Origin: Pegea sp. RAD2-039
Taxonomy: Eukaryota; Chordata; Thaliacea; Salpida; Salpidae
DNA: 64,000 nucleotides
Direction of reading: 5' to 3'
Assembly (NCBI GenBank): GCA_034620365.1
Contig: JAQGEQ010000343.1
Location: 372,001 to 436,000, forward strand
Numbering within the stretch: position 1 is the first letter of the stretch; every line of letters begins with the position of its first letter. The notes beneath the pieces are model-generated. The model saw only the letters and a list, made by a program, of their open reading frames with translations. It did no database searches and had not been told where the DNA came from. Of the stretch, positions 28,358 through 55,314 are shown piece by piece. The translations under genes and the position numbers were made by a program.

Positions 28358-31300
28358 TTAGAAATCTTTTTGGAAACGAATTGTATCAATCATTTTCGAG
28401 GCTTTCTCTAAAACCTAAAATAAAAGAATTTTGAGAATTTTTCATTTATAATTTTAACTAAACATCAGGTTTGAACCTTTATTTTTTCCTGGGCTCTCTT
28501 CCTTTTTTCAAGGACATCTTCAGATTCTTGAAGCAAGCTTTTAATCTCTTCAGGGTTCTTCAGTTCTTTTCTTAAACAACTTTCAAGGTGTTCCGTGGAA
28601 TATTCAATCATAAAAACCATAATTACTTTCGGGATACTGAATTTAGTTCCGGGATAATTTTTTGTTTTAAATTTAAACTAATCTTACTTTATTGTGATCA
28701 TCTTCATCACAAACTTGCTGTATGCTTCAACCAATTTTTGGACCGCTTCGACCTTTTCTTTTTGGCAGGGAGTTAAGGAGGACTCATCCTAAAAAAATCC
28801 CCCAAAATGAAAATTAAAAGAAATTTTTTTTAATAATTCCTACATCTTGGAGTTTAACTGAAGGATTTGTTTTAGGATCTTCTTCAACTACTTCTGAAGA
28901 TGTATTTTTATGCCAGCGTACTGGTTTCATATATGAAGAAAGACGACCTTTGAAAATAATGGAACCCAAAAGTTTATTTTGAAATTATAAAAGTTGAGAA
29001 ATTATTTTGGATTTGAAATCACTACAAATGACTCACCAAAAATTCTAAATGATTCATTCGAAGAACCCTGATTTGAATAATGAGTCAAATTTAAACATTT
29101 TTTTGATTGCTAATTCATTAGATAAAAAAACAAACAGAGATATGAATCACAAAAAAGAACTTTTCTATTTAAACTTTTGCAAATAAATCTACACAAGCTT
29201 AAAATAAATTTTAGAAATTAGAAAATCGCTTGTTAATCGTACTTATTTAATTATTATTAATTGTTTTGTATTTTAAACTAACCTCTGTTTCAGAAGTCTT
29301 ATTTTCATCTTTTAAAATCATTATATTTTTTGCTTTTATGTAAGATGACTCCATCTTTATTTGGAATCGTATCTAAAAAACGAGTTGTAGAATCATTTTC
29401 AGTTATTAGATAAATAAAACTAAATTTTAATTAACTTGTTCTTCAGTTTTATGAAGACTTCTTTTCAATAAATCCAACGAAATTTGATAAATTCGTTCTT
29501 GAAGCTTCGGGTAACGTTCGAAATAGTTTGAATAACGAAACTTGAATATAAATGAAAAATTATTAATTTTTTCAACCAGATTATCAACTCACATTTTCAC
29601 CGGTACGTCTTATAATTAAATGACATTCATCATAGACACTAGAAGCTAATTTTAAAGAAGGTTCTTCAAATAACTTGATCCTTTTTTTAACAAGTGGCTT
29701 AAAAACATCCAAGTCTGAAAAGTCGTCATCTAAACCCTACAATTTTGAAATTTTTAATTTTTTTAAGTAATGAAATTTATGCAAATTAATTACCTGCGCA
29801 TTTGCAATTGCAGTTTTAACAGCAGCATTACTAATCAATCGTTTTTCACTTGTTTTTTCCACACTTTTTTGAAATTGTTCTTCTAAAAGATTACTAATAC
29901 GTGCGCTGCCGACTCTAAGCACAAAAAATCCTCAAAATCTCCCCAAAAATTAAAATAAACAACTTACAGCTTATCCTCAACAACATTATTACTACTTCTC
30001 ATAAATACTTCCGAAAAGCCTCTAGAAAATTCAGATATAATTGATGTGATTACATCAACTCCATTTTCTCTACTATAAACCTCTAACATTGTTGAATATT
30101 TTGACTGTAAACTACAAATTGCTAGTTTTAGATCGGGAAGACATCTTCTTATATGCTCCACTAAACTCCTGAAAATCAAACTAATCAGCAACAGCTGATC
30201 TAAAGGAATCTGTTGACCTATTTAGGGTCACTGAAAGAAACTTTGTCCCATTTTTAGAAGCAATTGAAGGGTAATTTTCTTTAAGGAATATTTCCTCATC
30301 TCTTAATGAAGCTTTAATATTTTTTTTATTATTTATATCCAATTGACTTCTATTTACAACACCTAAATATATCTGAATAAACTTTTAAACTTTTAGATAT
30401 TTTTTTAGTTACCTATTATACCAAGTTTTACTGGAATGACATTTCCAGTTAAGACATTAACAGCATCAGTTCCTTTATCCATCAAATCCAGTTTCGTCAC
30501 AACGGCAAAAGTCCGTCTTCCGAACTGATCCACTTGCTTTGCTAACTGTGATGTAAAAAAAAAACAATTTTCTTCACCCCCAACTTATTTTATCTTACCA
30601 TCAACGCTTCAGATGTTGCAAAGTCGACGTTTGCTGGTGTAATAGCCAAAATAATCGCATTTTTATTCGAGATATAACTCAAAACTAACTCTTCAATTTG
30701 CTTTCCAATATTTTGTGGTTGGTCTCCGACAGCGACCTTAAATAAGCAAAGATTTTCATTTTTTGAAGATCAGTTTTTCTACATCTTTATCAGATCAAGG
30801 ATTATTTGTAAATAATTTTTAAAACTCTAATCGACCTTTACTAAACCTGGGAGATCTACTAAAGTCAGATTACAAACATCTGAACTAAAAATCTTCAGAT
30901 GAATAGCTTCAGTCGATATTCCTTTATTGCTTCCACTTAATCTTTCTGTTTCTTCTTCAATTTCAGTCCTTACTTTAGAAAAATTATAAAATTTCTTATC
31001 AGGTAGATGTAGAAACTCAGCGTAAGGTTTCACATCATTTTCTGTATCAAATAATTTTGTAAATATTTAGCAAGTTGAGTTTTAAAGTTCAAAATATCAA
31101 ATACAAATTTAAGCTTCGAGATTATTAGAATTATATTTGAAATCTTAAATATTTAAGGTGACGAAACTTAACATAGACATAATTCTTTCATCGTTTTCTA
31201 AAGTATTAACATCAAAATATTATTAAAATATCATTCTTAGTTATTGTAGAAAAATGATCAGTTTTTTCGTAGAACGAAAAATTTAATATTTAAATCTCAA

Positions 31301-31710
31301 AGTCATAGAAACAAATGTTTTAAAAACTTGATCAATTTCTTCAAAGTATTATTCAAAGTTTCATTTGGTATCTCTATCGAGTATTAACAATAGAACCTTT
31401 ATTTTTATCCAATGAGCTTTGAATATTAACCAATTGAAGAACTAGAGGTCTTCTTGTTACAATTCCAGCTCCTCTCGGTAAGAAATCGATTCCAACTATA
31501 TTCTCTAGCACAGAGCTCTTTCCACTGCTCTGTAATGAAAACGGAACTTGTGATAAGCTACTAATAGAAATATTCGCAGAAATTGAATTAAAAATCTTTC
31601 CAACTAACTTGAGACCCGACAACAACAAGTTCTGGTAATTTTTTAAACTCTGATCCAACAGTTTTAAAAATATCTTGAAGGTTTATAAGAGTAGGAACTA
31701 GTTTCTCCAT
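28358..31710 (-). CDS. Dynamin-related GTPase, DRP1/DNM1L-type, divergent paralogue 1
   Basis: Sixteen exons: 31609-31710, 31397-31529, 30836-31041, 30599-30736, 30413-30545, 30218-30362, 29968-30168, 29794-29914, 29593-29735, 29436-29540, 29283-29372, 29037-29067, 28844-28947, 28688-28788, 28477-28636 and 28358-28414. DRP1 proteins are cytosolic GTPases that assemble on mitochondria and peroxisomes to drive fission. The GTPase domain keeps G1 GSQSSGKSS, G3 DLPGLVK and G4 TKLD. The middle domain ([12 protein letters not shown]) and the GED ([14 protein letters not shown] ... [18 protein letters not shown]) are diverged but complete, and the variable B region is short. Exons 1-3 with their introns are nearly identical to paralogue 3, in inverted orientation. 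No frameshift or stop was seen, so it is probably functional. Confidence 0.88.
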
Positions 31711-32589: not shown

Positions 32590-33250
32590 ATGAAAGCGAG
32601 AGTACCTCTTGCTAACACACATTTACTGAAATAATACTATATATAGATATAACTATTAATTTATTAGCTGTTATATATAATCAGAATACAAATATATAAA
32701 GAAAAAAATATAACACAATGTTGGCAATATTACAACGGTTCAACTTCTGCTTCAACAATGCGAGTGACTTCGACATGGCAATGTCTGATGGCAGCTGATT
32801 CCACGTACTAATTGAGCGGTATGAGAAAAAATTCGCTCTGACCGATCTATTAGGTGATATAGGCTTATTAAGGGGTAGTCTGAGCTGATATAACTTGAGG
32901 GAAGGACTAATGGAAAATAAATCATCAATTTGAAGGTCAATTAAATTGTGGATAGTTTTAGAAATAAGAATTAAGTCGTATTTAATCCACCAAATTTCCA
33001 AAGTATCTAAATTGAAAAAGCTAAGACGATTAGTAAGTTTTTTGCCATCTTCATACACAAACACACTGACATCATCTACTGCTACTAATCTTCTAATGAG
33101 GTCTTCGATGAAAATTAAAAAGAGAAGGGGACCCAGAACGGAACCCTGAAGAACACCACTAGTGATTTGACTAGGAGTAGATATTTAAGAGGTTTTACCT
33201 AATAAGTAACCTTTGATCCACTTTAAAATAAAGCGGCTGGTGTTAAGCTT
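32590..33250 (-). mobile_element. LINE copy with internal deletion
   Basis: On the minus strand it reads SRFILKWIKGYLLGKTS, an in-frame stop, QITSGVLQGSVLGPLLFLIF, LIRRLVAVDDVSVFVYEDG, then skips most of the RT palm to NRLSFFNLDTLEIWWIKYD and the C-terminus (ISTWNQLPSDIAMSKSLALL). The YADD box is changed to YEDG. Its 3' UTR (AGCAAGAGGTACTCTCGC) is a worn version of the family end. Same family as the copies at 21.8-23.5 kb. Confidence 0.8.
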
Positions 33251-34698: not shown

Positions 34699-37600
34699 AT
34701 GGCTTCTTTTGGAACAACAAATTTATTTGATGAGTTTAAAACTGAAACACCTGTTGATAATAAAACCAAATCTTTAGAAAATGAAGATAGTGATAATTTA
34801 GAGGAAGAAGAAGAAGATGAGGATGATGATTATAAAAGTAGAAAACTAAAACAATATAAAACTCAAATCCACCAATTAAAAAAAGAGAATTCTGCTTTAA
34901 AAGTTGGTTAATTTTTAATATTTTTTTGTTTAGTGTTCTCTATTTAATTTTTTAAATATAAAATAGTTTCACTTAAAAATTTCAAAGCTATTTCTATTCA
35001 AATAACATCTAAACAACTTTTACTTTAATAATTTATAATTATCTTACTTAATAACTTTATAAAAACTATTTTATTAAATAATCTTTTTATCTGCTTCTTT
35101 CAATTTTAGAAATCTTTGAGAATATTCACTCAACAACCTAGTTTGAAAGTAAAAGAAATCATGAGAGATGGACCAGTAGCTCATCTAGTTTTATTTCATA
35201 ATACTTATACCAGGTGATTATTTGATTTTAAACTATTTTAACATTATAATTTTTTAATATCAAATTATATTTTTATTAAAGCTATTTATATTTTAAAAGT
35301 TTTTAATATAAATAAATGGTTTATTTTTTAGTATTTATTTGTAATTCAAATTATTTAAACAATTTAAACAATGTTTTTAGCTGGTTTTCTTTTAGATAAT
35401 TTTATTCTTATATTTTCTTGTTAACTAATTTTATTTTGAATATTTCAAATCCTTTAATAAAATAGAGTAACCATAGTTTGAAATATTACAACCAAAAACT
35501 TTATCAGCTCTCATAAAATAACTGGAGTAATTTGTTGACAAATTATATAACTGATTCTCTAATTATAATCCCTAAATTTGCTTTTGTAGTTTTACTTTTT
35601 ATAAACTCTTGATGGTAAACTACTTGAGACTTTTTAATTTCTTATGATTTATATTGCTCACTATAAGAGCTTTACAATTTATCATTTGAAGTTTAATAAA
35701 TAGATTTTAGAAGACAATTATTTGAATCTTACAGTGAACTTGCTGAGGACTTGAAACGAACTATTAGTAGAAAGATTGAGAAATATTCATCATCAGATAA
35801 TCAATTTCTTTGTAAATCACAATCTTCATCAATCCAATACACCCCAAAAACCCTTAGACATAATTATGATTATAAAAAATCTGATAAGAATGAAAAGAGG
35901 TTATCAAAAGTATTCACAGCAACTCACTCGTTACAATTTTATAAAGGTGACTTCTATATCGACCATCTAGGTGAACCAATTACAAATGTAAGATTCAGTT
36001 CCTTCAGATTCCTTTTTTTTAATCATTTATTCTCAGAATGAATCAACAATCGATTATGAAAGAGGATGTCTTGACCCAATGAACGGGATCATCGAATTGA
36101 AAGATGAACTTAACAAGTATTTAAGCTTTTGAATATATAAAGTAGTAGATGGAAGATCTGTCTGCGCATGTGCATTGAATATAGTGGACAGTAGAACCAC
36201 CCCTGCTCATCTGCTGTTCAGTGAAACGGCCCAGTGACCTAGGACAGTGACCACGAAGTCAACAGATTGTAGGTTTTGTGTTCACTTCATTCTTTCGAAG
36301 CAACCACAAAACTAAAACTGGGACAGTAGCTTAGGACAGTGGCCTGGGACAGAGAGGCTTGGGACAGTGGCCTGGGACAGTAGCTTGGGGCAGCAACCTG
36401 GGACATTGACCATGAGGCCCATAGGTTTCCCTGTCCTAGATGGTCCTACAACCAGGGCTGATTCCTCTGTAGTTTGCTTCTTCTGATACTTCCCGCGTTC
36501 GATAGATGACGTAACGACGCGATTTGTTGATATTTGATGAATTTTGAAATTTTGATAAATTGTCAAATTTTCAACAGAAAAACAAATCGGTCTTGTTGGA
36601 ATTGTGGAGGTGTAGACCATCAACTAAACAAATGTCCAGAACCACGAAACCACAAGAACATCCAACAAGCTAGAACAGTGAGTCCTCATCTTCATCTTTC
36701 AATCTCTTTATTGTGTCTTCGTTTTTTAGTCGTTTTTAGAACAAGCACACGGTTCTTTCTCCAACTCTCAGCGTTACCATGACGACGAACTAGATGAACG
36801 CTTCACTCAATTCAAATCTGGTGTTATCAGGTGACCACTTGTTGATGAACGCGAATGTGTTTCTAGGAAATTAGCGTGACTTTTGCAAACGAATCGTGTC
36901 TTTGCTGATATTTTCTAACATTTTTTTCGGTTTTTTAGTGACACACTTCGATCAGCTCTAGGAATTTCTTCTAAACAACTTCCTATCTTCATTTATCGAA
37001 TGAGATACTTTGGGTATCCTCCAGGACACCTTGAAGATGCTTTTGAATCACAAAGACCTCTTAATCTTTACAAAGATGCAAATGAGATGAACACAACAGC
37101 CGATGGTTGAATTTTATGGTTTTTTTTCATGAAATTTTCAACAAATTTTATTTCAGATTATTTAGATGTCTCAAAACTGATAGCTTATCCTGGATTTAAT
37201 ATTCATGATGAGAGTTATATTGATGTAAGTCTCTAAATAGTGTCTTCAAGATCTGATCTTCCTTTTACAGGAGCATCAACTGTTTGGATATCCTCCTATT
37301 GATCATGATAAAAGTTATCAGAAGATGGTGAAGTATTATGAAGATAGGAACAAGAAGAAGTCAGTTTTGATCTCCTTGAATTGATTGAAACTCAAATTCT
37401 GTTTTTAGTCAACCGGGTGTGAAACCGGATGTTGCAAACTTGGAAGAAAACCGCGATCTTCAAGATATGGATCTTGAATCGGAAGAACAAGGTTTGTATC
37501 TTCTAGAAGTTGTTGTCCATCTAGGGGGCGATGTGGTCACCAAGTGTGTGGTTACGGGTTCGATCTCTTATCAGTGACAAAGAAAAGTCCATAAAAACAC

Positions 37601-40600
37601 GAGTCCAGGTTCACGACCGCCTGACACGTGGCCCCAGGTTCGAGTCCAGGTTCACGCTCGCCTGACACTTGGTCCCAGGTTCGAGTCCAGGTTCACGACC
37701 GCCTAACACGTGGCCCAAGGTTCGAGTCCAGGTTCACGCCTGCCTGACACGTGGCCCAAGGTTCGAGTCCAGGTTCACGGCCGCCTAACACGTGGCCCAA
37801 GGTTCGAGTCCAGGTTCACGCCTGCCTGACACGTGGTCCCAGGTTCGAGTCCAGGTTCACGCCCGCCTGACACGTGGCCCAAGGTTCGAGTCCAGGTTCA
37901 CGCCCGCCTGACACGTTGTCCCAGGTTCGAGTCCAGGTTCACGACCGCCTAACACGTGGCCCAAGGTTCGAGTCCAGGTTCACGCCTGCCTGACACGTGG
38001 TCCCAGGTTCGAGTCCAGGTTCACGCCCGCCTGACACGTGGCCCAAGGTTCGAGTCCAGGTTCACGCCCGCCTGACACGTTGTCCCAGGTTCACGCCTGC
38101 TTGACACGTGGTCCCAGGTTCGAATCCAGGTTCACGACCGCCTGACACGTGGCCCAAGGTTCGAATCTAGGTTCACGACCGCCTGACACGTTGTCCCAGG
38201 TTCGAGTCCAGGTTCACGACCGCCTGACACGTGGCCCAAGGTTCGAGTCCAGGTTCACACCCACCTGACACGTGGTCCCAGGTTCGAATCCAGGTTCACG
38301 ACCGCCTGACACGTGGTCCCAGGTTCAAGTCCAGGTTCACGCCCGCCTGACACGTGGTCCCAGGTTCACGACCGCCTGACACGTGGCCCAAGGTTCGAAT
38401 CTAGGTTCACGACCGCCTGACACGTTGTCCCAGGTTCGAGTCCAGGTTCACGCCCGCCTGACACGTTGTCTCAGGTTCGAATCTAGGTTCACGACCGCCT
38501 GACACGTTGTCCCAGGTTCGAGTCCAGGTTCACGACCGCCTGACACGTGGCCCAAGGTTCGAGTCCAGGTTCACGCCCGCCTGACACGTTGTCCCAGGTT
38601 CACGACCGACTGACACGTGGTCCCAGGTTCGAATCCAGGTTCACGACCGCCTGACACGTTGTCCCACGAGTCCAGGTTCACTCCCGCCTGACACGTTGTC
38701 TCAGGTTCGAATCTAGGTTCACGACCGCCTGACACGTTGAGTCCCGCCCGCCTGACACGTTGTCCCAGGTTCACGACCGACTGACACGTGGTCCCAGGTT
38801 CGAATCCAGGTTCACGACCGCCTGACACGTTGTCCCAGGTTCGAGTCCAGGTTCACTCCCGCCTGACACGTTGTCTCAGGTTCGAATCTAGGTTCACGAC
38901 CGCCTGACACGTTGTCCCAGGTTCGAGTCCAGGTTCACGACCGCCTGACACGTGGCCCAAGGTTCGAGTCCAGGTTCACGCCCGCCTGACACGTTGTCCC
39001 AGGTTCACGACCGACTGACACGTGGTCCCAGGTTCGAATCCAGGTTCACGACCGCCTGACACGTGGTCCCAGGTTCGAGTCCAGGTTCACGCCCGCCTGA
39101 CACGTTGTCTCAGGTTCGAATCTAGGTTCACGACCGCCTGACACGTTGTCCCAGGTTCGAGTCCAGGTTCACTACCGCCTGACACGTGGCCCAAGGTTCG
39201 AGTCCAGGTTCACGCCTGCCTGACACGTGGCCCAAGGTTCGAGTCCAGGTTCACGCCCGCCTGACACGTTGTCCCAGGTTCACGACCGCCTGACACGTGG
39301 TCCCAGGTTCGAATCCAGGTTCACGCCTGCCTGACACGTGGCCCAAGGTTCGAGTCCAGGTTCACGCCCGCCTGACACGTTGTCCCAGGTTCACGACCGC
39401 CTGACACGTGGTCCCAGGTTCGAATCCAGGTTCACGACCGCCTGACACGTGGTCCCAGGTTCGAGTCCAGGTTCACGCCCGCCTGACACGTTGTCTCAGG
39501 TTCGAATCTAGGTTCACGACCGCCTGACACGTTGTCCCAGGTTCGAGTCCAGGTTCACGCCTGCCTGACACGTGGTCCCAGGTTCGAATCCAGGTTCACG
39601 CCCGCCTGACACGTTGTCTCAGGTTCGAATCTAGGTTCACGACCGCCTGACACGTGGTCCCAGGTTCGAATCCAGGTTCACGACCGCCTGACACGTGGTC
39701 CCAGGTTCGAGTCCAGGTTCACGCCCGCCTGACACGTTGTCTCAGGTTCGAATCTAGGTTCACGACCGCCTGACACGTTGTCCCAGGTTCGAGTCCAGGT
39801 TCACGCCCGCCTGACACGTTGTCCCAGGTTCACGACCGCCTGACACGTGGTCCCAGGTTCGAATCCAGGTTCACGACCGCCTGACACGTGGTCCCAGGTT
39901 CGAGTCCAGGTTCACGCCCGCCTGACACGTTGTCTCAGGTTCGAATCTAGGTTCACGACCGCCTGACACGTTGTCCCAGGTTCGAGTCCAGGTTCACGAC
40001 CGCCTGACACGTGGCCCAAGGTTCGAGTCCAGGTTCACGACCGCCTGACACGTTGTCTCAGGTTCGAATCTAGGTTCACGACCGCCTGACACGTTGAGGT
40101 TCGAATCTAGGTTCACGACCGCCTGACACGTTGTCCCAGGTTCGAGTCCAGGTTCACGCCCGCCTGACACGTTGTCCCAGGTTCGAGTCCAGGTTCATTA
40201 CCGCCTGACACGTGGTCCCAGGTTTGAGTCCAGGTTCACTACCGCCTGACACGTGGCCCAAGGTTCGAGTCCAGGTTTACGCCTGCCTGACACGTGGTCC
40301 CAGGTTCGAATCCAGGTTCACGCCCGCCTGACACGTTGTCTCAGGTTCGAATCTAGGTTCACGACCGCCTGACACGTGGTCCCAGGTTCGAGTCCAGGTT
40401 CACGCCCGCCTGACACGTTGTCTCAGGTTCGAATCTAGGTTCACGCCCGCCTGACACGTTGTCTCCCAGGTTCACGACCGCCTGACACGTGGTCCCAAGG
40501 TTCGAATCTAGGTTCACGACCGCCTGACACGTTGTCCCAGGTTCAAGACCGCCTGACACGTGGCCCAAGGTTCGAGTCCAGGTTCACGACCGCCTGACAC

Positions 40601-41659
40601 GTGGTCCCAGGTTCGAGTCCAGGTTCACGACCGCCTGACACGTTGTCCCAGGTTCGAGTCCAGGTTCACGCCCGTCTGACACGTTGTCCCAGGTTCACTA
40701 CCGCCTGACACGTGGCCCAAGGTTCGAGTCCAGGTTTACGCCCACCTGACACGTGGTCCCAGGTTCGAGTCCATGTGGACACATATTTGCGACAAGAAAA
40801 AGTTTATAAAAGACCGAGTAGAAAGCCTTGTTAGTCTGTTTTATGACAAAACTTCTAAGAAACGCAAAACTCCGAATTTAAAACCGGAGTTGGAGCCCCA
40901 TAGACAGTTTGTCGCTGTAGTCAGTGTCGTTATGACAACTCCTGCGACGCCAGCTGCATACCTTGCTGGCGTGAATCCTGCTTCATGGGCAACAACTGGG
41001 TCTTCACAATTTCTGCCCTGGCACATAAATGCGTGCAAGGTCTTTTGTGGGCCAAAAAGATTGAACCGATTTACCTTAATTGTCGGCACCTTAATTTGAA
41101 GCTTTTACGGTTTTAATCAAATTTATCAAATTCTGTTTTTACAGATGAAAGTAACATCAGTTTGTTCTGCAACAAACTTAAAGTCAGTTTGTTTTTTTTG
41201 TTTCTATCAAATTTTTTACAAAATATGTTTTAGAATGGAAATCTCGAAGCAGTCAATTCAAGCACGCCGAAATCCGACAGCCATCTAGTGGTAGGTTTTT
41301 CTCATCTTTTATTTGATTCTAATTTTTTTTTAATTTCAGAATAATCTGAACAACGAACCGAAAAAATCCGAAGAAAATGAAAAAGTACAAATTTCTAAAT
41401 AAATTTACTAATTTTTTAATTGGAAACACTTTTTCAGATTATTTATGAAGACGGTGAACTACATGATGAAGATGTTCCCGACACTTCAAGTTGTGACGTC
41501 ATAGAAGAAGTCGATCTTTCCACAGAGGAACCTTGTTCAGACACAAGAAGAGTTCCTCACCGAAGTAACTTTGCTTCTGGAATAACTGAATTTACTTATT
41601 GCAAAGAGACTCCATCTAAAGGGACATATGATGATCTGATGAAGATTTTAAAGAAATGA
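34699..41659 (+). CDS. ZCCHC8: ZCCHC8-type CCHC zinc-knuckle and PSP-domain protein (NEXT complex)
   Basis: Fourteen exons: 34699-34902, 35110-35213, 35711-35987, 36037-36116, 36578-36677, 36730-36830, 36939-37105, 37157-37224, 37271-37359, 37409-37491, 41145-41182, 41234-41290, 41340-41384 and 41438-41659. ZCCHC8 scaffolds the nuclear exosome targeting complex, bridging the helicase MTR4 and RBM7. Visible parts, in order: an acidic stretch with a coiled coil (QIHQLKKENSALK); the FYKGDFYIDHLGEPI segment; a CCHC knuckle (CWNCGGVDHQLNKCPEPR); the PSP domain (QRYHDDELDERFTQFKSGVI, FIYRMRYFGYPPGHLEDA, KLIAYPGFNI); and the C-terminal MTR4-contacting segment (FASGITEFTY). Exon 6 starts at 36730 because only that acceptor keeps frame. 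Intron 10 is about 3.65 kb, expanded by the SINE minisatellite; intron 4 holds a GGGACAG-rich element. Confidence 0.93.
36140..36535 (-). mobile_element. GGGACAG-rich dispersed element in ZCCHC8 intron 4
   Basis: It contains many variants of GGGACAGTGGCCT and GGGACAGTAGCTT plus unique ends. Read on the minus strand it begins near AATCGCGTCGTTACGTCATC and ends near GCGCATGTGC...ATCTAC, matching a longer copy in plus orientation at about 56620-57535. It carries no coding sequence. It ends about 40 bp before the next exon, so the splice acceptor is outside it. Confidence 0.7.
37511..37600 (+). other. tRNA-like segment at left edge of the minisatellite
   Basis: It includes CATCTAGGGGGCGATGTGG and a B-box-like GGGTTCGATCTC at about 37555-37566. 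It may be the remnant head of the SINE that seeded the array, or an unrelated SINE. The A box is not convincing. Confidence 0.3.
37601..40773 (+). repeat. 41-bp minisatellite made from a SINE tRNA head, about 77 copies
   Basis: Units read CGACCGCCTGACACGTGG, CCCAAGGTTCGAGTCC, AGGTTCA with few variants. Each keeps an anticodon hairpin (ACCGC-CTGACAC-GTGGT, five base pairs), then a T arm with a perfect RNA polymerase III B box (GGTTCGAGTCC or GGTTCGAATCC). The same segment occurs once in the intact SINE at 53911 (GCCCCCTGACACGC, then TAGGTTTGATACC). The array runs directly into that SINE's body on its right side. Many units contain the palindrome CACGTG. It lies wholly in ZCCHC8 intron 10. Long open frames on the minus strand (GGREPGFEPGTTCQ) are artefacts of repetition. 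Confidence 0.93.
40774..41024 (+). mobile_element. SINE body (tail part) adjoining the minisatellite
   Basis: It is closely similar to 53975-54247: CTTGTTAGTCTGTTTTATGA, CTCCGAATTTAAAACCGGAG, and CTGCTTCATGGGCAACAACT ending TTCTGCCCTGGCAC. The tRNA head has been replaced by the expanded array. A section near GCATCAGTCCTTCTGTTCCG in the other copy is shorter here. Confidence 0.88.
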
Positions 41660-42336
41660 GCTCACTAGAGGGCGCTTATAACTATTTTTCAGTTGTTATA
41701 TTGTTTATCAGGAAGTTTTTTTTATTGTTTTGACGGCTTTTTCAGTCGCATTGGTTTTTAAACACTTTGAATTCTTTCATCTGCAAAAAACTAATAATAT
41801 TTTATGAGTAGGCAAGGAAATTTGATTTAGTAATCTGTGATATATCAATCCAAACTTTTAAGAGGGTTGCAATTGAATTAAAACTTAAATAAAGAAATTT
41901 CTGAAATACTAGTTACTAACATTAAGCAGAAATATTTCAAATTTATTGATAAAATTTAATTAATAATTGTAAAAGAACTTCACATTTAAAGACTTTTTGA
42001 TGAAATATTTCAAAGTTTTTGAGCAAGATCATTAAAATCACTTTTTTGATAATGAAATTAAGTTTTTTAAACTTCGAAAGAATTGCTGAGTTTGAAAAAT
42101 GTTTTACGAAAATTTGTTTCAAAATAAATTTGATGAAAAAACTGATTATTTGATTGACAAAAAGATATTTTGTGATTTAATTGAAATCTTTTCTCTTTCA
42201 TTTTAAATTGTAATCGATTATTCTAAAAATTTGTAAATATACAAAATAAGTTTGATAATTATAAACTTTAAAAACTTTTTTATTCATTTTTACAATTTTA
42301 TTAACACAACGCACTTTTTCATTTTCGGGAAATTCC
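41660..42336. other. Intergenic region downstream of ZCCHC8
   Basis: It starts with a CTCF-like sequence (CACTAGAGGGCGCT, about 41663-41676) directly after the stop codon; the rest is AT-rich with no gene recognised. Confidence 0.45.
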
Positions 42337-42585
42337 CTAAACTGAATCTAAATCATTAATTGAACTAACTGCTGATAAAATTGGAAATAAATCGATTATG
42401 AGATGGTTTAATGCGCAGATGAAAACAGAAAAGACTTCCTTCAATAAAACATGCGTGTAAACACTTAGACCACTAGATAGAACTTCTAGTTGCTCCTGTA
42501 TGATCTCAACAGACTTCGCGAGATATATGACGTCATAGGAAGCGAATTTTGAATATAATAAATAATTAAACACTAAAAGTGTCAA
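42337..42585 (-). CDS. Hypothetical hydrophobic ORF or terminal exon
   Basis: An open frame of about 82 codons with no ATG at its 5' end; a stop lies just upstream, and GCATAG at about 42586 could be a splice acceptor, so it may be a terminal exon. It reads SVEIIQEQLEVLSSGLSVY, then a hydrophobic segment (EVFSVFICALNHLIIDLFPI). I do not recognise it. It lies between ZCCHC8 and Miro. It may be a chance frame. Confidence 0.25.
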   Translation of the reverse strand: MTLLVFNYLLYSKFASYDVIYLAKSVEIIQEQLEVLSSGLSVYTHVLLKEVFSVFICALNHLIIDLFPILSAVSSINDLDSV

Positions 42586-42756
42586 CTATGCGGGAAGATC
42601 ACTCAGAAGATCCTTTTGATAACATAAAGAAAAGAATAATAAGTGTCATGCCGCATAGAGGGGAATTCCCTCAAATATTTGGTCCATTCATAAAAATTTG
42701 TTTCAATTTCAGTAAAATTCTATCAATTTTTTGTGAAACGTAAAAATTTGAGAAAT

Positions 42757-44622
42757 TTATTTTAATATTTTGCGAGCATCTAAATATTTATATAAACCGA
42801 AACCCAATAGCGCTGTGAACGCGAATAACGACCCGACTTTTAAATAATAAGGGAAGGAAGAATCTTTTTGAGAAAGCTGAATTTGTGTAGTGGGTCGAGA
42901 AGCCATCGATGCTATCAACTCATAAATAGATTGATTTTTGAAATTTGCGGAAAACGCGATAGGCGGCGAGAGGTTGTTTGAGACACAAAATTCTTCAGGT
43001 TGTTGTACAGATCGTTGTTTAACTGATTTTCTATCTGATTTTGTTGATATCAAGATACAAGAGATATCTGATGACGTCTCAACGAATTGCCGATATGCTT
43101 CAACACATGGTTGGAAACTGTCCGCGTCCGTGACGTCATATAATAAACAAACGATATCACACATGAAGAGACCTTCACCAGCAGCCATCAAATCATCAAT
43201 ATCAACTTCATGTAGAAGAAGATAGACAGGAGCACGTTTTGGGAGCTTAATTTCGTTTATAGCGATCACGGAGTTATGAGATCGTTTTTTCGGATTTGTT
43301 TCATTTGAGTTGATGAGACCTTGAAGAAAATTCGATTTTCCAACACCTTTTGAACCGATTACTTTACATGTGAAGATATCTCTACCTAAACCACCAACTT
43401 TACCAGATACATAAGACACTGCATCAGTTTGTGAGAGCTTTCCACCTAAAGTTGCATATCCAAGGTAAGCTAGATGTTCTAAAGTTCTTGGTACATCGAG
43501 ATATGTGGTTAGAACCCACTGTGAAATGAAACCAACTAAAGTAACAGACCCATTTGTATCTGTGTTGACTGTACTCAATACATCATGCCCCCAGGGCTCG
43601 TATGGAAAGACACTGAATAAATCTTCAAGTTCGTTTTGGTTTAACGCCCCGTCTTTATCAAGATCAAACTTATTGAAAACTTCTGTGAGAAAACTTTTTC
43701 CGTTTTCACTTAATTGCGGGACTAAGTCTGTGTTTGGTGGTTGAATATTATCAGGTATTAAATACTCTTCTGAAATTTCTAAATTATCGTTATAACCAAA
43801 CTTTCGAAGTACTGCCCAGGTAGTTTCATGACGACCACGTTGAATGAAGAGTAGATGAAGATAAAGAAATCCTTCTAAGTTTAGACAATCATCTACAACC
43901 CCTTGATGAGGGCAGTTCTTTGAAACAACATTTTTAACATCTATAAGGGCTTGAGGTGCTAGAGGAGTGTTGAAACAGATGGTTTGGAACTGGTTCAGTT
44001 CTTCATCACTCAATAAACCATCGTTGTTTTTATCACAAAGTTTAAATATTCTCGTCAACGCTAACCTACTTTCTGGCTTCAGATAACCATCTTGTGGTGA
44101 ATAAAGAGGTCCTGTAGGATGTAGAACAGCTTTTTGTGCAAAGTAGAACATCTCACTGACATTATTCATCGTTTTAGAAGAACATTCAATACAAGTTTCA
44201 ATCTCAGGAAAATCACTCATAATAGGAACAGCGTCATAGACTTTCGAATCATTTATTAAATCTGATTTTGTTCCTACAAGTACTATAGGAGGACAATTAT
44301 CATGTAAATTATACTCTCGAATAAGGGGAAGCCACCTAGACCGAACTTTATGGAGCGTTACTACATCTGTTAGATCATAAACTAAACAAATGACATTAGC
44401 ACGTCCTATCTCTTCACATAATTGATATTCTTCTTGTTCAGCTTCAGAATAATCCACAATATAAGTGGGTACTTTTTCAGGTGTTACTTCTGCTGGTATA
44501 GTTATTTCTTCAACTCTATTTGGAACATCTTCAGGAAAGTCTTCTGTTACTAGAGCTAATATTAAAGAAGTTTTACCAACACCAGGTTCTCCCAGAAGTA
44601 GAATATGAATGTCTTTCCACAT
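42757..44622 (-). CDS. RHOT1: Miro / mitochondrial Rho GTPase (RHOT), intronless
   Basis: A single 621-codon frame, close to the family's usual length of about 618 residues. Miro is a tail-anchored outer-mitochondrial-membrane GTPase that links mitochondria to kinesin and dynein adaptors. The N-terminal GTPase has P-loop GEPGVGKTS (about residues 11-19), VDYSEAEQ and VGTKSD. EF hand 1 is CDKNNDGLLSDEEL and EF hand 2 is DLDKDGALNQNEL. The C-terminal GTPase has GSKGVGKSN and ISTKSD. The protein ends with a transmembrane anchor (FAFTALLGFGLYKYL) and a short basic tail. The start ATG gives the family N-terminus (MWKDIHILLLGEPGVGKTS). Open frames on the opposite strand are shadows. Every other large gene here has many introns, so its lack of introns is unusual. 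The symbol is by family; invertebrates usually have one Miro. Confidence 0.97.
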   Translation of the reverse strand: MWKDIHILLLGEPGVGKTSLILALVTEDFPEDVPNRVEEITIPAEVTPEKVPTYIVDYSEAEQEEYQLCEEIGRANVICLVYDLTDVVTLHKVRSRWLPLIREYNLHDNCPPIVLVGTKSDLINDSKVYDAVPIMSDFPEIETCIECSSKTMNNVSEMFYFAQKAVLHPTGPLYSPQDGYLKPESRLALTRIFKLCDKNNDGLLSDEELNQFQTICFNTPLAPQALIDVKNVVSKNCPHQGVVDDCLNLEGFLYLHLLFIQRGRHETTWAVLRKFGYNDNLEISEEYLIPDNIQPPNTDLVPQLSENGKSFLTEVFNKFDLDKDGALNQNELEDLFSVFPYEPWGHDVLSTVNTDTNGSVTLVGFISQWVLTTYLDVPRTLEHLAYLGYATLGGKLSQTDAVSYVSGKVGGLGRDIFTCKVIGSKGVGKSNFLQGLINSNETNPKKRSHNSVIAINEIKLPKRAPVYLLLHEVDIDDLMAAGEGLFMCDIVCLLYDVTDADSFQPCVEAYRQFVETSSDISCILISTKSDRKSVKQRSVQQPEEFCVSNNLSPPIAFSANFKNQSIYELIASMASRPTTQIQLSQKDSSFPYYLKVGSLFAFTALLGFGLYKYLDARKILK

Positions 44623-47600
44623 GTTTAAAACTAATGAATATGGAAATGATATTTAAACTGAAGCATTACACATTTGGTATCATCAGCTGAAAATAATTTG
44701 GTAATTTCAAAAAAAGAAATTTACTTTAATTTTAATATATTTATGAAATCATCAAAAAAAATTATAAGATAATATTCAAATATCAAATTAAAATATATAA
44801 TGATTCAAGTTAAAATTAAATTATTAAAAATAAAATAAAAAATAAACAACTTTATTAAACAGATTATCAAGTTTTTAACTTTTAATTAAAATATATATAA
44901 AATATTCTATAATAATAAAACCTTGATAAAAAATTTGAAGTATTTATAGCTAAATATTTGAATTTAATGAGATAAAAACTAATATAAGAAAATTCTAAAA
45001 GTTTAATGCTAAAAAAATGATATATAAAATTAGGTAAAGAATAAAACTTTTGATAAATAAAATAAAATAAATGTAAATATATAAAAAGATTTATTATTTC
45101 TATAATTTAAAACCAATAATTGAACTATTATATTACTTTTTTCAAGTCATAACAAATATTAAACTTTTCATATTTAATTATATAAAACTATCTCAACAAT
45201 TAAACTAAATGAAATAAAAAAAACTAAAGTTTAATTTCCTTAAACATTTAATAAAATAGAAAAAAACTTTTTATAAATCTGAAAATGAAACAAATTATGA
45301 TTAAAGCAAATGTAGATGATTAAGTTGCTTTCTTTATATGAGTAATTTTCAATCATACCTTATCTAAGTTATTAATTAACTAAAATTTAAATATTTCATC
45401 AAAAAACTATTTATCTAATTATATGCCTCATAAGAAAAATACTTTTTCATAATTATTTTTATGTGTTTGCATAATATAATTCAAATTAAAAAATAAATAA
45501 TTAAACTTTACAGAGTTTCAAAGTAGTAAATAAGAAATTATTTTCAAATACTTTAATTTTGTTTGAAAACAATTAATTTCAATTTAAAAAAAAATGATTT
45601 ATAAAATATTAGAATATGATGAAGTTATTTCATTAAGTAATAAGTTCTATAATAAAAAATATTAGTAAGTAAAGTAAAAAAGATACTAGAATAAAATTAT
45701 TGATATCTTTAAACAATATTTCTACAAAACTATCAATAAAATCATAAAAAAAAATTTAACTAAATAAAACAAAATCCATTTTAAAAATAACGAAATAGTT
45801 GGATGTTAAATAAACTAAAAACTATTTTGTTTAAATTTTATATTTACTATTTAATTAAATAGATTCAGACAAAAAATATAAATAAAGTTTATCCAATTAA
45901 AGATAAACTTTTATAAATTATCAATTTCTTATAAACTTCAATAATTAGAAAATAATTTCATCTAAATTTTAATAAAAAATTAAAACTTAAAGTCACAAAT
46001 TAGTAATTATAACTTTTTATTATTGATAAATAATTTTATTTACAATTTTTTTAATATTTTCATAAAAATATTTGAGAAGTTTTTAGCTAAATATTTCAAA
46101 ATATAGTTTTTAAAAATCGATAACTTTTTTTTACTTAATAAAATATCGAAAAATAATTAGCAAAAGAAATGTTTAAATACTTAACAAATAGTTTCTCAGC
46201 AAACATAATAAAATTAGATTTTTAAACAAACTTTTATAAGCAAATAAAAAATCAATAAATTACTAGAAAGAAAAAAAATTTTTGTAACTTTCTTAAACAT
46301 AAGATATTTCAGTGATAGAGTGACACTATGTTCTACGGTCAATATTTGAAGTTCAATATTTAAAAAAATTATACTTAAATAATAATGTTACTCCTTTTTA
46401 AACTTATAAGTATTGAAAATACAAAGAAAAAGCAAATCTTAAAAACTAAATAAATGATTTTAGTGCTAACAATGTATAAGGATCTTGTGTTTATATTACA
46501 CTGAAATTAAATTTGTAGTAAAGTATAAAATAGGCAGACCCTAAAAAAACACAAATCAGAAGATTTGTATAAAATATAAAAATCTATAAACAGAACAGTC
46601 TATAAAAATTCAAAGTTTTTTGGTTCAGTTTTGTAGAGCGAAGTAGTTAATAGAAGAAAGTTGGCGCTTTGATTGTAGTGAAGTTCAGCGTGCGCTAAAC
46701 CAACCCTAATTTATAATCGATGTTTGCGGACACAACAGATCAAAGTGAATGGTTGGTAATCAAAATACCTTCATTAAGAAGTCTGTTTTTAACACTATAA
46801 GTTTGTTGAATAAGCTTGATGTCTTTATTTAAATTATAGGTCGTTATATAAAGGTACATCTTAGATTATTAGATTTTTGTTTATCTATCCGCTTTTATAT
46901 AAAAAAGGCTTGTATAGCCTACCTACTTATAAACAATAGATAGATTAACTAATTAAATGTTGAAGTATTTAACCTAAAAAAACAATTTAGTAAAAGTTAA
47001 TAGTATTATCCATTATAAAAAGATTTTTAAAAGTTAGAAGATTAAGATTAGATATTTTTAAAGTAATTTTAATATGATGAGTATAACTACAGAAAATAAA
47101 AAGAAAGCATTTAGTGAATGATTGGAAACAAAGCTGAAAAGTTGGTCATGATAGATAAGTTTTTAATAACTCTGCATTTTATATGTTAACGACATAATCC
47201 CATCTAAAATATCATTATTTTCAGGCGTGCTAAATTGTTTATATTTCAACTGTATATTCCCCGTCTTATCTAAATCTTGGTAATTATTTCCTGGTCGGTA
47301 TTTGCTTTTGGAGTAATCCAGACAGAAAATCTGCAATCTGTCAGTCCCAACATCCTAGTAACTGAGACTCGGAGCCGAAAAATCAGGTGTAAAAATTGAG
47401 GAAGGTTAAAGGGAATCCCTTAAATATGAACAAAACGCATGCATGGAGGTATTATACAATAAAATTTTCCAACACTCTTATAGCGAGGGGTAACAAAACA
47501 AGGACAAACTAATTCTATTTATAGATACTCCAAAATTTTCTATATGCTAACATCGATAAATAACAAAAAAGTTTAAATTAACGCTATATTTAGTAATTTA

Positions 47601-48694
47601 GTTTTTAAAAATGTTTAATCTCTAAAAGCAAGTCTTCAGCAGTTTTATTGACAAGCCTTACAGACTGGTCTTTAGTGTCTGGTATCTAAAGTCTTGTATT
47701 TAGTGACTTTAAGTCTTTTAGGCAATTCTTTTTGAGCTATGCAAGTGTATAAAATGAATAAATTCTAAACTTAAGCATTGGAATATGAAAGAGTCTCTAA
47801 ACTTACAAAGTAAAGGGCTAGCATTTTTTTAACGATTTAAAAGTAGTATTTATGTTGAAAAGATTTATTTTTGGTGCTGAAACTAACTTGAAAAAACTTT
47901 TAGTTTAACCCAATTTATCATCGATTTTTTAAAATGCATGCTTTAGATAATTTATTTTTATTTTTGACAAAATAATTCCTCAATTTAATATTTTTTAATA
48001 TTCTTGAAATTTTTTAAAGTATTTAAAAATTGTATTTTATGAATATTTACATTTTCGAAAATTATTTAGATTTTGAACTAAATAAAAACAAACATGCTAA
48101 ACTTTGTGAATAACGAACCTTGCATTAATCATTCTATGAAATATTTGAGCTTGAAATAATTAAAGAACATTTCTTTTTTTAAAGTTTGATATTTTATTCT
48201 TTAAATATTTGAAAATACGAGTTTGCCTATAATATTTATACTGTTTTTAAACTATTTATTTTAGCATACTTTGTATAAATGGTTTTTTTAAGCTTTTTAG
48301 ATTAGTTTAAAATTTTGTTTTTGTTTTTATCTCTGAGTTTCTTAATTTTTTATTTCGAAAAAAAAGTTTATTTTGATGTAAAATTTGAAAAAGTTTTTTA
48401 CAAAACATAAACTATAAATGAAAATGTTAAAATTAAATCTTAGAAAATGTTTTCTTTTAATTATTTCTATTCTTTTTTCTAAATATAAATTATCTTTAAA
48501 TATTTTAATCATTTTTTTTTTATTTTTATAAAAAATAAAATATTTTTTGGTCATAGAAAACTTGAAAGAGTTTCAATATTTTTATGTTTTATAAAAAACT
48601 CATTTTACAAATATTTTAAATATCAAAAAAGTTGTTAAACTTGTTCATATTTATAGTTTGATATTTCACTTGTTATAAAAACTTATTTTAATTT
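44623..48694. other. Long AT-rich intergenic region
   Basis: About 4 kb between Miro and the canonical DRP1 gene. Most is very AT-rich and featureless. Two less AT-rich patches stand out: about 46620-46760 and about 47160-47520. The second contains an open frame listed separately. Confidence 0.5.
47163..47354 (-). CDS. Candidate orphan exon or gene fragment
   Basis: After a possible acceptor (TTACTAG) a 63-codon frame runs to a TAA: VGTDRLQIFCLDYSKSKY, then RPGNNYQDLDKTGNIQLKY and NNDILDGIMSLTYKMQSY. It is less AT-rich than its surroundings and reads like protein, but has no start codon, no family I recognise and no clear partner exon. It could be a piece of a dead transposable element. Confidence 0.22.
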   Translation of the reverse strand, partial: DVGTDRLQIFCLDYSKSKYRPGNNYQDLDKTGNIQLKYKQFSTPENNDILDGIMSLTYKMQSY

Positions 48695-51600: not shown

Positions 51601-53188
51601 TGCTGGAAAACTTTTTCAGCTAAAACATATAAGTTGGGTAAATATCTAACTTCTTTTCAAACATCTTGAAATTAATCTCATCTACAGGGTTCACGCCCCA
51701 CTTGGTTTATCCCGGAATTGACCTTTGAACTTCTAGTCAAACGTCAAATCAAAAGATTAGAAGAACCATCTCTCTGTTGTGTGTCTTTAGTCTTTGATGA
51801 GTTACAAAGAATAGTTCAACACTGTGGAACAAAAGTAAGCTTCCAGGACATAAAAAGTGATCTTTAAACTCTTCTTGTAGTCTCTAGAAAGATTCCCGGT
51901 CTTATGGAGCCGAATTTGTGAAGTTATGAACGATTTATTGAAAGAAAGACTTCCTATAACCAACGAAATGGTATTTTCCTATCTCATCAATTATTAATTT
52001 ATCTACAAAACCTTATTTTCCAGGTTTCTCATCTAGTAGCAATTGAACTTGCTTATATCAACACCAAACACCCTGATTTTATCAACTCGCCGACAACTAC
52101 CGAGGTTATGACTTCTGTTCTTCAAGTAAGATTAAATCGAATCAAGTTTTGATGATTTTAAGTGAAATTTTAAAGACTCTGCAAGTAAAAGAAGAAACAG
52201 AAACTTTAAAAAATGAAGAAATTAATTATTTAAACGCTGAAAGAGTAAGATCAACTACAAAATATCTCAAACTCCTAAAAATGTTTATTTTAGATGAAAG
52301 AAAATACGTATACACCCTCAGAACCATCTCTAGATGCAGTACTTCACGAACAACCACAATCATCTCATCAAATTTTTGGTTTAAAAATCTTTTCATTGAA
52401 ATTTTTATTGAATTTTTTTTCATCTTTTTTTTAAAGAAAAATTAAACAGAATTTTTCTGCTCATAAAACAAAGTATTTCTTCTGTTGGTAAAAAAACCTT
52501 TCTTGGCTTTCTATTTACGTTCAAACCTCATCTGGTTCACGTTTAACAACTTCTTATCTCATCAGCAAAATGGAGAAAACCAAATAATCCTCATTTAGAA
52601 GAGCAGAAAAAATCACATTCGATTTTTTCAGAAGATTGCCCACTAGAGGGCACCTCAGAGTTTTATAAAACTCCTAATCAAAATAATCAACGAATTAATC
52701 TCATCAACAACGTAAGTCATCCCAATAAACTCTTTCAAATCTTCTAAATTATTCAAATAGTCGATGATGTCATCAAGAAATCTAACTCTTCACGAAAAGA
52801 GAGATGTAAATATTATCCGTGGGTTAATCAAGTCTTATTTTAAGATCGTTTTGAAGAATATTCAAGATAGGTTGGATTTTGTGTCTTTGTATCTTCCTAA
52901 AATTATCAGATTTTTAATTTTAGTGTTCCTAAAACAATCATGCACAATATGGTGAATTACGTGAAAGAACATCTTCAATCTCAGTTAGTTGGTGTTCTTT
53001 ATAAACCAGAAGACATAAAACAATTATTAAAAGAGTCAGATGACGTCTGTGAAAGAAGAATTGAAGCTATCAAGATGTTAGAGGTACTACAAAACCTCCA
53101 AAATGAAACTTTTAATAAAATTGATCTTTTAAAGGCTCTAAAAAAAGCATCTGTGATTATAAGCGAGATCAGGGACTTGAAGATCTGA
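48695..53188 (+). CDS. DNM1L: Dynamin-1-like fission GTPase DRP1, canonical copy
   Basis: Exons: 48695-48796, 49583-49724, 49771-49917 (likely cassette), 50023-50270, 50448-50585, 50635-50767, 50988-51132, 51180-51386, 51431-51551, 51688-51834, 51881-51970, 52024-52125, 52294-52379, 52566-52711, 52761-52870, 52924-53083 and 53135-53188. The GTPase domain has [23 protein letters not shown] and [12 protein letters not shown]. The middle domain has NRLLM-like [42 protein letters not shown] and [14 protein letters not shown]. The variable region keeps KWRKPNN. The GED has [35 protein letters not shown] and [13 protein letters not shown]. It is collinear with human DNM1L to the last residues, far closer than paralogues 1 and 3, and is probably the main mitochondrial and peroxisomal fission GTPase. 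The exon limits in 52126-52565 are the least certain. Confidence 0.95.
49771..49917 (+). other. Probable cassette exon in the DRP1 GTPase domain
   Basis: 147 bp (49 codons), phase 1 at both ends, so skipping or inclusion keeps frame. It encodes a Ser/Asn-rich peptide ([20 protein letters not shown] ... [12 protein letters not shown]) inserted after [19 protein letters not shown]. That is the region of the GTPase-domain loop where vertebrate DRP1 has its alternatively spliced A-insert. Paralogues 1 and 3 lack it. Confidence 0.55.
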
Positions 53189-53589
53189 TCCACAGATTAC
53201 AACATCCGGTTGTCTTGCATCTAATGTCTTATTCGATTTCTTATATCATGTCAATTGTCATTTGGAGATTTCTTGCCCTGTCTAAAGAAACTAGTTTCTA
53301 AATAATTTGTTGTCCTTTTTTGTGTGTTGTACTCCTGCAGATGAAGCTGTCTATTCTGTTTTCTAACTTTCTTCATGAAAATTGAATTTTAATAAAATTC
53401 AAACTGATAACTGCTGCTGACTACCACGAAACATCAGAAAGTAATTTCTATTTTTAATCTTAATAAGGCGTACTAACTATTAAAGCCTACTTACTCATCA
53501 ATTACTTCATCTGCTGTTTGCTTAATTGAAAGAAATTATTATCATCAACTATGTTTGAAATCACGTGACAAAAATCTAATAAAAACCTA

Positions 53590-53765: not shown

Positions 53766-53910
53766 TTGATATCTAATTAGATCTCAAAAAGTTTGAGGCT
53801 CGAAAGATGTAGAGTTTATTTAGAAAAGTAAATCTTCTAATAAACAAACTCGTGATAAAAGTAGAAAGCTAATTAATGAGTTTCCACCTCTGCTTTTTAT
53901 ACGATTCTAC

Positions 53911-54268
53911 GTCACCGTAGTGTAGCAGTTATCACGCCCCCTGACACGCAGAATGTCCTAGGTTTGATACCAGGACACATATTCGCATGGAGGAAAAGTT
54001 CATAAGAAACTCGGGTAGAAAAGCCCTTGTTAGTCTGTTTTATGACAAAACTTCTAAGAAACGCAAAACTCCGAATTTAAAACCGGAGTTGGAGCCTCGT
54101 AGGCAGTTTGTCGCTGTAGTCAGTGTTGTTATGACAACTCCTACGACGCCAGCTGCATCAGTCCTTCTGTTCCGCTGCATAATCTTGTTGGAGTGGAATC
54201 CTGCTTCATGGGCAACAACTGGGTCTTCACAATTTCTGCCCTGGCACAGGGCCATTTTCGGCCCTGTG
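53911..54268 (+). mobile_element. tRNA-Val-derived SINE, full length
   Basis: The head (53911-53983) aligns along its length with eukaryotic tRNA-Val: GTCACCGTAGTGTAGCAG, TTATCACG, the loop CTGACAC and a T arm GGTTTGATACC. The anticodon position reads GAC. The acceptor stem no longer pairs, so it is a SINE head and not a tRNA gene. The body continues CTTGTTAGTCTGTTTTATGA, CCGAATTTAAAACCGGAG, CTGCTTCATGGGCAACAACT and TTCTGCCCTGGCAC, ending in a perfect 9-bp hairpin (CACAGGGCC-ATTTTC-GGCCCTGTG, 54245-54268). I cannot assign the body to a named SINE superfamily. Open frames through it are incidental. Confidence 0.88.
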
Positions 54269-55314
54269 TTTAGATATTTATTATAATTTTTATTTTATTA
54301 TACTTATTTAGTATTATATCAACTGTTTACTTTAAGGTTGAAATTAACCAAAAACAAAGCTTCTGTTATACTAGTTATAGAGAGTCTTTGCGTTTAAGAA
54401 CCTCTTCGAACAAATGATCATCAATCTTTTAATTCGAAAGCAAAAACTCTACAAAAGGATTCCAAGAACATCTATTTATTAGATTGATTCATTCTGTGTT
54501 TCCAAACCCATCATTTTTGTGAATTATGTTGCTATGGACTTCTTAGGTGAAATTAATTTATTTAAAAGGTTAAGCTGCCAGTTTTACTTCAAATAATTCG
54601 TCGATAAATTAAGATTTTTTTGTTAAAAATATGAAACACTTTTTATGTTTGGTTGTCTTTGTCGAATATTACGTTTAGCGTGGCAGAAAAGATCTCAAAC
54701 AACAAAGTCCTAAGGTGCACCGAACTGACAACGAGTTGCTAAGCAAGCAAAAGGTCCGATGGACGACGGACTGATGCCATAAGATCTGTTGTGTGGGATC
54801 CATAGCAACATCTGCCGTTCCTGTTTCTATTTAAAGATATCGGCGAGCGCGATATGAAATCGCTCATCATCAATATAAACAGTTAGGAAGATATCGCAGC
54901 GGATCGCTCCGAATGGCGCTCTCTACTTCGCGAACAACTGAAAGAGAATGAAGAAAACCAGCTTCAAAGAAAAGAAGAATTTTCATTCCATCACTCAAAG
55001 CACATCCCGCTAATAAAGGACCGAAGATCAAATGATGAAATAATCTTTTGATTGAGTGTTTGTGAGAAGAAGAACCAACTTTAAGTTTAGAGTTAAAATT
55101 TGCTGATTAAAGTTTTGACGTTTCTAAGTAACTTTGAAGTCAAAAAAATAATAAATTTTTTGTGAAAATAATTTAATAAAAAAGTTTTAAATCAAAAAAT
55201 TGAAACTTTCAAACATTTTAATCAAAACTGTGAATGAATAAAACTTGAATATTTCCATAAAAAGTTTATTTTCTTATTTAAATCCTAGTTTTAATCGCTA
55301 CCAAGAAGTTTAGT
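54269..55314. other. Intergenic region upstream of DRP1 paralogue 3
   Basis: Mostly AT-rich. A GC-richer patch at about 54665-54960 (TAGCGTGGCAGAAAAGATC, ATATCGGCGAGCGCGATATG) has no coding sense I can read and may be a promoter-proximal element or old mobile DNA. Confidence 0.4.

What the first reader, a model, noticed from the sequence alone, without database searches (positions are those of the whole stretch)
37601..41024. A minisatellite built from the anticodon hairpin, T arm and Pol III B box of a tRNA-Val SINE
About 77 units of 41 bp each repeat the middle and right part of a tRNA: anticodon stem-loop (ACCGC-CTGACAC-GTGGT) plus T arm with a perfect B box. A single-copy version is the head of the full-length SINE at 53911, and the array runs directly into that SINE's body at 40774. 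So a SINE head expanded in place to 3.2 kb. It creates dozens of TFIIIC-type B boxes without A boxes inside an intron of ZCCHC8, resembling the extra-TFIIIC (B-box only) sites known from other eukaryotes.
Basis: partly seen in the sequence, partly recalled or inferred. Interest (0 to 1): 0.82.

Follow-up and report, generated by a model that had tools for sequence, protein, structure and literature searches.

The report
SINE-head minisatellite in a ZCCHC8 intron
Part of the tRNA-like head of a common short retroposon has multiplied about 80 times inside an intron of an animal gene, a clear example of a known kind of event; whether its many Pol III B-box sequences do anything is untested.

Summary
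37600-40773 is an array of 41-bp period (81 anticodon-loop anchors; 65 of 80 intervals are 41 bp, 10 are 29 bp). Its unit is nt 22-66 of the head of a tRNA-Val-like SINE, minus 4 nt. The last unit runs unbroken into a SINE body (to 41066). The unit's joint was found nowhere else in the held 105.7-Mb assembly, while the SINE itself is abundant, so the array most likely arose at this one copy. It lies in an intron (37492-41144) of a ZCCHC8 gene.

One correction: the left flank (37540-37605) is a second SINE remnant (T arm plus start of the body), joined at a shared CGAGT. One head expanding in place does not explain that edge; two neighbouring SINE copies plus a deletion do.

The TFIIIC idea is allowed but unsupported. 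There are 66 strict B boxes in 81 units and no A box on the + strand, but the B box varies about as much as the rest of the unit. The anticodon stem is fully paired in 14 of 81 units, the T stem in 0 of 67. SINE-derived satellites whose unit carries box B are already described in snakes. Verdict: new member of a known kind, modest interest.

The parts
37492..41144 (+). Intron of the ZCCHC8-like gene that holds the whole structure (3,653 bp)
   Evidence: GT-AG ends read from the sequence; joining the exon ending at 37491 to exons 41145-41182, 41234-41290, 41340-41384 and 41438-41660 gives one open frame to a stop codon. No RNA data.
37540..37605 (+). Left SINE remnant: T arm and start of body, ending at CGAGT, where the array begins
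   Evidence: nhmmer E 4.1e-6 in the window, profile positions 60-135; 87% over 46 bp to the SINE copy at C117:333610; 21 of 22 bases to the SINE consensus.
37600..40773 (+). Minisatellite of the SINE head: 81 units, mostly 41 bp, 10 intervals of 29 bp
   Evidence: TRF; anchors; 39 distinct unit sequences; joint word unique to this array apart from one ordinary SINE T arm.
40733..41066 (+). Right SINE: last array unit continuing into acceptor strand and body
   Evidence: nhmmer E 6e-89; 81% over 319 columns to the SINE at 53.9 kb.
53894..54280 (+). Full-length sibling SINE (not part of the array)
   Evidence: nhmmer E 1.3e-112; query of the genome search with 992 first-look candidates, 40 scored.
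36531..37110 (+). Region with upstream ZCCHC8 exons: zinc knuckle and PSP domain
   Evidence: zf-CCHC E 0.0014 (19.1 bits, below the cut-off of 20.8) and PSP E 1.5e-12.
41438..41660 (+). Last ZCCHC8 exon with the C-terminal motif
   Evidence: Only PDB hit at E<=10: 6c90_B, zinc finger CCHC domain-containing protein 8, E 0.87, 34 residues.

Best explanation
It is a SINE-derived minisatellite. Two copies of an abundant tRNA-Val-headed SINE lay one behind the other in an intron of a ZCCHC8 gene. In the right-hand copy, a stretch from the D loop to the 3' strand of the T stem (head nt 22-66) was duplicated head to tail. It then grew to about 80 units by slippage or unequal exchange of single units and of multi-unit blocks. 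Exchange between repeated GGTTC words also removed 12 bp from some units, giving the 29-bp type without box B. A deletion between CGAGT in the body of the left SINE and CGAGT in a T loop of the array removed the rest of the left SINE and the A-box half of the right one. Shown: the origin of the unit, its confinement to one locus in this assembly, the unbroken right edge, the SINE remnant at the left edge, and internal block duplication. Inferred: the order of events, the exchange mechanism, and that the likeliest role is none: it is spliced out as intron RNA and probably varies in length between individuals.
For: The unit aligns to the SINE head over 45 positions with one 4-nt gap. The right edge is continuous with a SINE body and the left edge is a second SINE fragment. 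The joint word is found 67 times in the array and once elsewhere, there as an ordinary T arm. 24 of 24 matches of a 201-bp array query are in the array. TRF on 31 other SINE-bearing loci (99,397 bases) found 86 arrays, 0 with a SINE-like unit. Longest exact internal repeat 214 bp at 39346 and 39785; 41-bp units 91% identical on average, against 67.5-84.3% between the SINE at 53.9 kb and the copies in the fetched loci.
Against: The left remnant is short (66 bp) and its A-box half is not recognisable, so a single rearranged SINE is not excluded. The 10-nt gap that it shares with the C117 copy is not a proven subfamily mark: a pattern with 3 mismatches found just those two places, but the reversed control also gave two hits. 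The genome searches score only the best candidates and skip very common words. No relative or second individual was seen.
Confidence: 0.85

Rival explanations
1. One reading: a cluster of extra-TFIIIC-like sites. Dozens of B boxes without A boxes recruit TFIIIC and act on chromatin or on Pol II passage through the ZCCHC8 intron.
For: 66 GGTTCGANTC sites on one strand, no A-box consensus and no TTTT on that strand. In a genome-wide search for three box-B words in a row, 44 of 52 matches are here. TFIIIC-only loci exist in yeast, and box B is the main determinant of TFIIIC binding (PMC5356446, passages).
Against: Copying of one founder unit gives the same counts. Clearly polymorphic positions (commonest letter under 90%) are 2 of 11 in the box and 7 of 30 outside (counted), so there is no special conservation. 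The 29-bp units lack the box. No binding data.
Confidence: 0.05
2. A single SINE whose head was duplicated and rearranged with its own body gave both edges; no second SINE copy was involved.
For: CGAGT occurs both in the body of the right SINE and in the T loop of the unit, so one element could supply both ends of the left joint. SINE copies with internal rearrangement exist (C116).
Against: The left and right remnants differ over the stretch that they share, and a body fragment followed by complete D-loop-to-T-stem units needs at least two further steps.
Confidence: 0.1
3. Assembly artefact: a short tandem duplication that was inflated during assembly.
For: Long arrays are often mis-sized in assemblies (general knowledge); no reads were available.
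Against: 39 distinct unit sequences in 81 units, no N in the window, both edges are SINE sequence, and the gene stays in frame across the array. The exact length is still uncertain.
Confidence: 0.03

Closest known systems
SINE-derived satellites (sSat) of squamate reptiles, above all snake sSat3 (PMC10702118; outline with abstract, Results part 1 of 3, Discussion and term passages seen)
   Same: Tandem unit cut from part of a tRNA-headed SINE, including box B without the whole head; an end unit continues into the SINE; long loci with sub-variants; proposed to start by duplication within a SINE.
   Different: Snake unit is 67 nt and includes body; here 41 nt, head only. Snake sSats occupy up to thousands of loci and lean to subtelomeres; here one locus, in an intron of a gene. 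'Intron' does not occur in the paper's main text. The animal is not a squamate as far as the 105.7-Mb genome size suggests (inference).
TE-derived minisatellites such as Alu and mouse B1 minisatellites, and tRNA-related tandem families of Xenopus and Hydromantes (review PMC9659126, passages only)
   Same: Minisatellite or satellite born inside a Pol III retroposon or tRNA-related sequence.
   Different: Other parent elements and unit boundaries. PMC10702118 doubts the tRNA origin of the Hydromantes family.
Extra-TFIIIC (ETC) loci of yeast (PMC5356446, passages only)
   Same: Box B without a usable A box, at the level of motif.
   Different: ETC sites are defined by TFIIIC occupancy, untested here; the yeast sites named there are separate loci, not an array.

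Membership tests
SINE-derived satellite (sSat-type repeat) | Unit is a part of a SINE that also exists as dispersed copies | tested here: met
   Unit = head nt 22-66 minus 4 nt; 40 scored SINE places of 992 first-look candidates.
SINE-derived satellite (sSat-type repeat) | At least four tandem units | tested here: met
   81 anchors.
SINE-derived satellite (sSat-type repeat) | An end unit extends along the SINE towards its terminus | tested here: met
   Right edge: profile hit 40733-41066. Whether the extreme 3' end is complete was not checked.
SINE-derived satellite (sSat-type repeat) | Many loci with concerted evolution, subtelomeric bias (typical, not required) | tested here: not met
   One locus found; it lies at about 410-413 kb of a 622-kb contig; chromosome position unknown.
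tRNA-derived SINE | tRNA-like head with A and B boxes, body, dispersed copies | tested here: met
   Consensus head 59 of 73 identical to a recalled tRNA-Val gene; copies aligned. ARAGORN and Rfam call no tRNA.
tRNA-derived SINE | LINE-related 3' end, target-site duplications | not tested
   No partner LINE was sought.
Extra-TFIIIC (ETC) site | Box B present, A box absent | tested here: met
   66 GGTTCGANTC; TRGYNNANNNG 0 on +, 3 on - in the array.
Extra-TFIIIC (ETC) site | TFIIIC bound without Pol III | not testable with these tools
   No ChIP data held.

The most novel reading that the evidence does not exclude
The array is a natural, dense TFIIIC sponge: 66 strict B boxes in 3.2 kb, about one per 48 bp, with no A box on that strand and no Pol III terminator, in an intron of the gene for an RNA-exosome adaptor. 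It would be a one-locus test of what B boxes do without A boxes, and its length could tune ZCCHC8 output.
Probability: 0.05. Interest if true: 0.72.

Novelty: new member of a known kind. Interest (0 to 1): 0.33.

Why it matters
It shows a minisatellite with its parent element still attached, unit boundaries readable nearly to the base, and a start limited to one SINE copy among many. If TFIIIC does bind, it would be a handy natural array of B boxes.

Tried and rejected
Permissive Rfam scan of 37000-55000: two sub-threshold snoRNA matches, neither in the array nor in a SINE; taken as chance. Rfam at gathering scores on the whole window: none. ARAGORN: no tRNA in the window or in the SINE consensus. 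Hairpin conservation: the outermost anticodon-stem pair varies freely (C-T 30, A-T 30, A-C 13, C-C 5, A-A 2, G-C 1), so no sign that a hairpin is kept. A fixed higher-order unit: autocorrelation gives 41-bp multiples and weaker lags of 234 and 275; not pursued. The only joint-like hit outside the array (C116:52670, 2 mismatches) is an ordinary T arm in a rearranged SINE copy. The other two places with three box-B words in a row, C6:3286718 (17-bp unit) and C11:2357124 (19-bp unit), are unrelated minisatellites: the SINE profile gives no hit at E<=1 in L072-L075 (best E 3.2, outside the repeats).

Literature: eight searches. None listed a paper whose title or abstract opening describes a SINE-derived array in a ZCCHC8 intron or a TFIIIC study of such an array. 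Only the listings were seen, apart from the three papers named. Naming the species failed: the eukaryotic SSU search did not complete.

Full report
The array. TRF reports 37600-40773 with period 41, 80.2 copies and score 3986. With the anticodon loop as anchor I count 81 units; of 80 intervals, 65 are 41 bp and 10 are 29 bp. There are 39 distinct unit sequences. The array is 61% G+C, against 28% in the rest of the window. The 65 units of 41 bp are 91% identical on average in pairs, with little trend along the array or with distance. The longest exact internal repeat is 214 bp, at 39346 and 39785, so blocks of several units have been copied.

The parent. The SINE at 53.9 kb gives 992 first-look candidates in the own assembly, of which the tool scored 40, so the true number is not known. 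In the fetched loci, copies are 67.5-84.3% identical to it, the array's own SINE among them. An alignment of 33 rows (31 distinct places, two of them counted twice) gives a consensus of 426 positions. Its 73-nt head agrees with a tRNA-Val(AAC) gene recalled from memory at 59 of 73 positions without gaps, against 41, 44 and 47 identities for recalled Ala, Gly and Glu tRNAs. So 'tRNA-Val' is well supported, although ARAGORN finds no tRNA in the window or consensus and Rfam none in the window.

Where the unit was cut. The unit corresponds to head nt 22-66: from the D loop through the anticodon arm and T loop to the 3' strand of the T stem, with one 4-nt gap before the T stem. By eye, that gap is not seen in the other copies that cover the stretch. 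Read this way the unit joint is blunt. Alternatively it is a GGT overlap followed by a 2-nt loss.

The edges. On the right, the last unit passes unbroken into the acceptor strand and body (40733-41066, E 6e-89). On the left, 37540-37605 matches SINE profile positions 60-135 (E 4.1e-6), with 21 of 22 identical bases in its core and 87% over 46 bp to the copy at C117. This fragment carries body sequence and stops at CGAGT, a word also in the T loop of the unit. A body fragment to the left of a head array is not expected if one head simply expanded; it is expected if two SINE copies stood in a row and a deletion joined the body of the first to the array of the second. The two remnants differ over the stretch they share. 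A 10-nt gap shared by the left remnant and the C117 copy is only suggestive: the pattern with 3 mismatches found just those two places, but the reversed control also gave two.

One locus. The joint word GGTTCGARTCYAGGTTCACG with up to 2 mismatches occurs 68 times (reversed control 0): 67 in this array and 1 at C116, which is an ordinary T arm in a rearranged SINE copy. A 201-bp array query gives 24 matches, all here. TRF on 31 other SINE-bearing loci (99,397 bases; L009 lies in the window, L023 and L027 overlap) finds 86 arrays, 0 with a SINE-like unit.

The gene. Upstream lie a weak zinc knuckle (E 0.0014, below the curated cut-off) and a PSP domain (E 1.5e-12). The last downstream exon has a single hit at E<=10 among 177,635 distinct PDB sequences: 6c90_B, zinc finger CCHC domain-containing protein 8 (E 0.87, 34 residues). 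The E-value is weak alone, but the name is the one predicted. Joining the exon that ends at 37491 to exons 41145-41182, 41234-41290, 41340-41384 and 41438-41660 gives one open frame to the stop (one search had one boundary off by one). The array thus lies in a 3.65-kb intron, in the sense orientation. No RNA data confirm the splice sites.

Does it look functional? GGTTCGANTC occurs 66 times (51 with the final C), all on the sense strand. The A-box consensus occurs 0 times on that strand and 3 times on the other. TTTT, a Pol III stop, never occurs in the array. Genome-wide, a pattern of three box-B words in a row has 52 matches (reversed control 1): 44 here, 6 and 2 in two unrelated minisatellites. 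These numbers follow from one founder unit being copied. Among the 41-bp units, positions whose commonest letter is under 90% are 2 of 11 in the box (one of them the free N) and 7 of 30 outside (counted), so the box is not specially protected. The anticodon stem is fully paired in 14 of 81 units (4 of 5 pairs in 43, 3 of 5 in 24), and the T stem in 0 of 67. Neither a kept hairpin nor a kept box is shown.

Compared with what is known. SINE-derived satellites are described in squamates. The main snake type has a 67-nt unit from the 3' part of the head, box B included, and part of the body, with up to 320 and nearly 950 units at single loci (PMC10702118; outline with abstract, Results part 1 of 3, Discussion and passages seen). 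A review lists Alu and B1 minisatellites and tRNA-related tandem families of amphibians (PMC9659126, passages). TFIIIC-only loci are known in yeast (PMC5356446, passages). The present case has the anatomy of the snake type with a smaller unit, at a single intronic locus, so I file it as a new member of a known kind.

Limits. The assembly is unnamed, and the rRNA search that would help name it did not complete. Array length rests on the assembly. No second individual, relative, RNA or ChIP data were available.

Noticed in passing
23661-25446: Another minisatellite, 28-bp unit, 63.7 copies, not SINE-like by the profile search.
   Followed up: no
59246-60040 and about 53600-53770: 113-bp tandem repeat (7.1 copies), with related copies seen just upstream of the SINE at 53.9 kb.
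   Followed up: no
36318-36405 and 56761-57034: 13-bp/26-bp GGGACAGT-type minisatellite in the ZCCHC8 gene, and a similar one on the other strand 20 kb away.
   Followed up: no
32681-33184 (-): Fragment with weak reverse-transcriptase similarity (RVT_1 E 0.0029, below cut-off).
   Followed up: no
42757-44652 (-): Miro/RHOT-like gene (Ras, EF-hand and EF_assoc domains) lying tail to tail with the ZCCHC8 gene.
   Followed up: partly
29964-31682 (-) and about 49568-53390 (+): Two dynamin-like gene regions in opposite orientation; Dynamin_N was tested only in the first, the second is by eye from ORFs.
   Followed up: no
L018/L019 and L026/L030 (contigs C247 and C102): SINE loci 98.4% and 98.8% identical over 3.2-3.3 kb between two contigs, in different order, which suggests duplication or rearranged haplotypes.
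   Followed up: partly
L071 (C116:52400-53000): Rearranged SINE copy: body fragment, then T arm, then body; a possible sign that head-body rearrangements recur.
   Followed up: partly
L028 1489-1520: SINE copy with its 5' head start (CTCCGTAGTGTA) duplicated.
   Followed up: no
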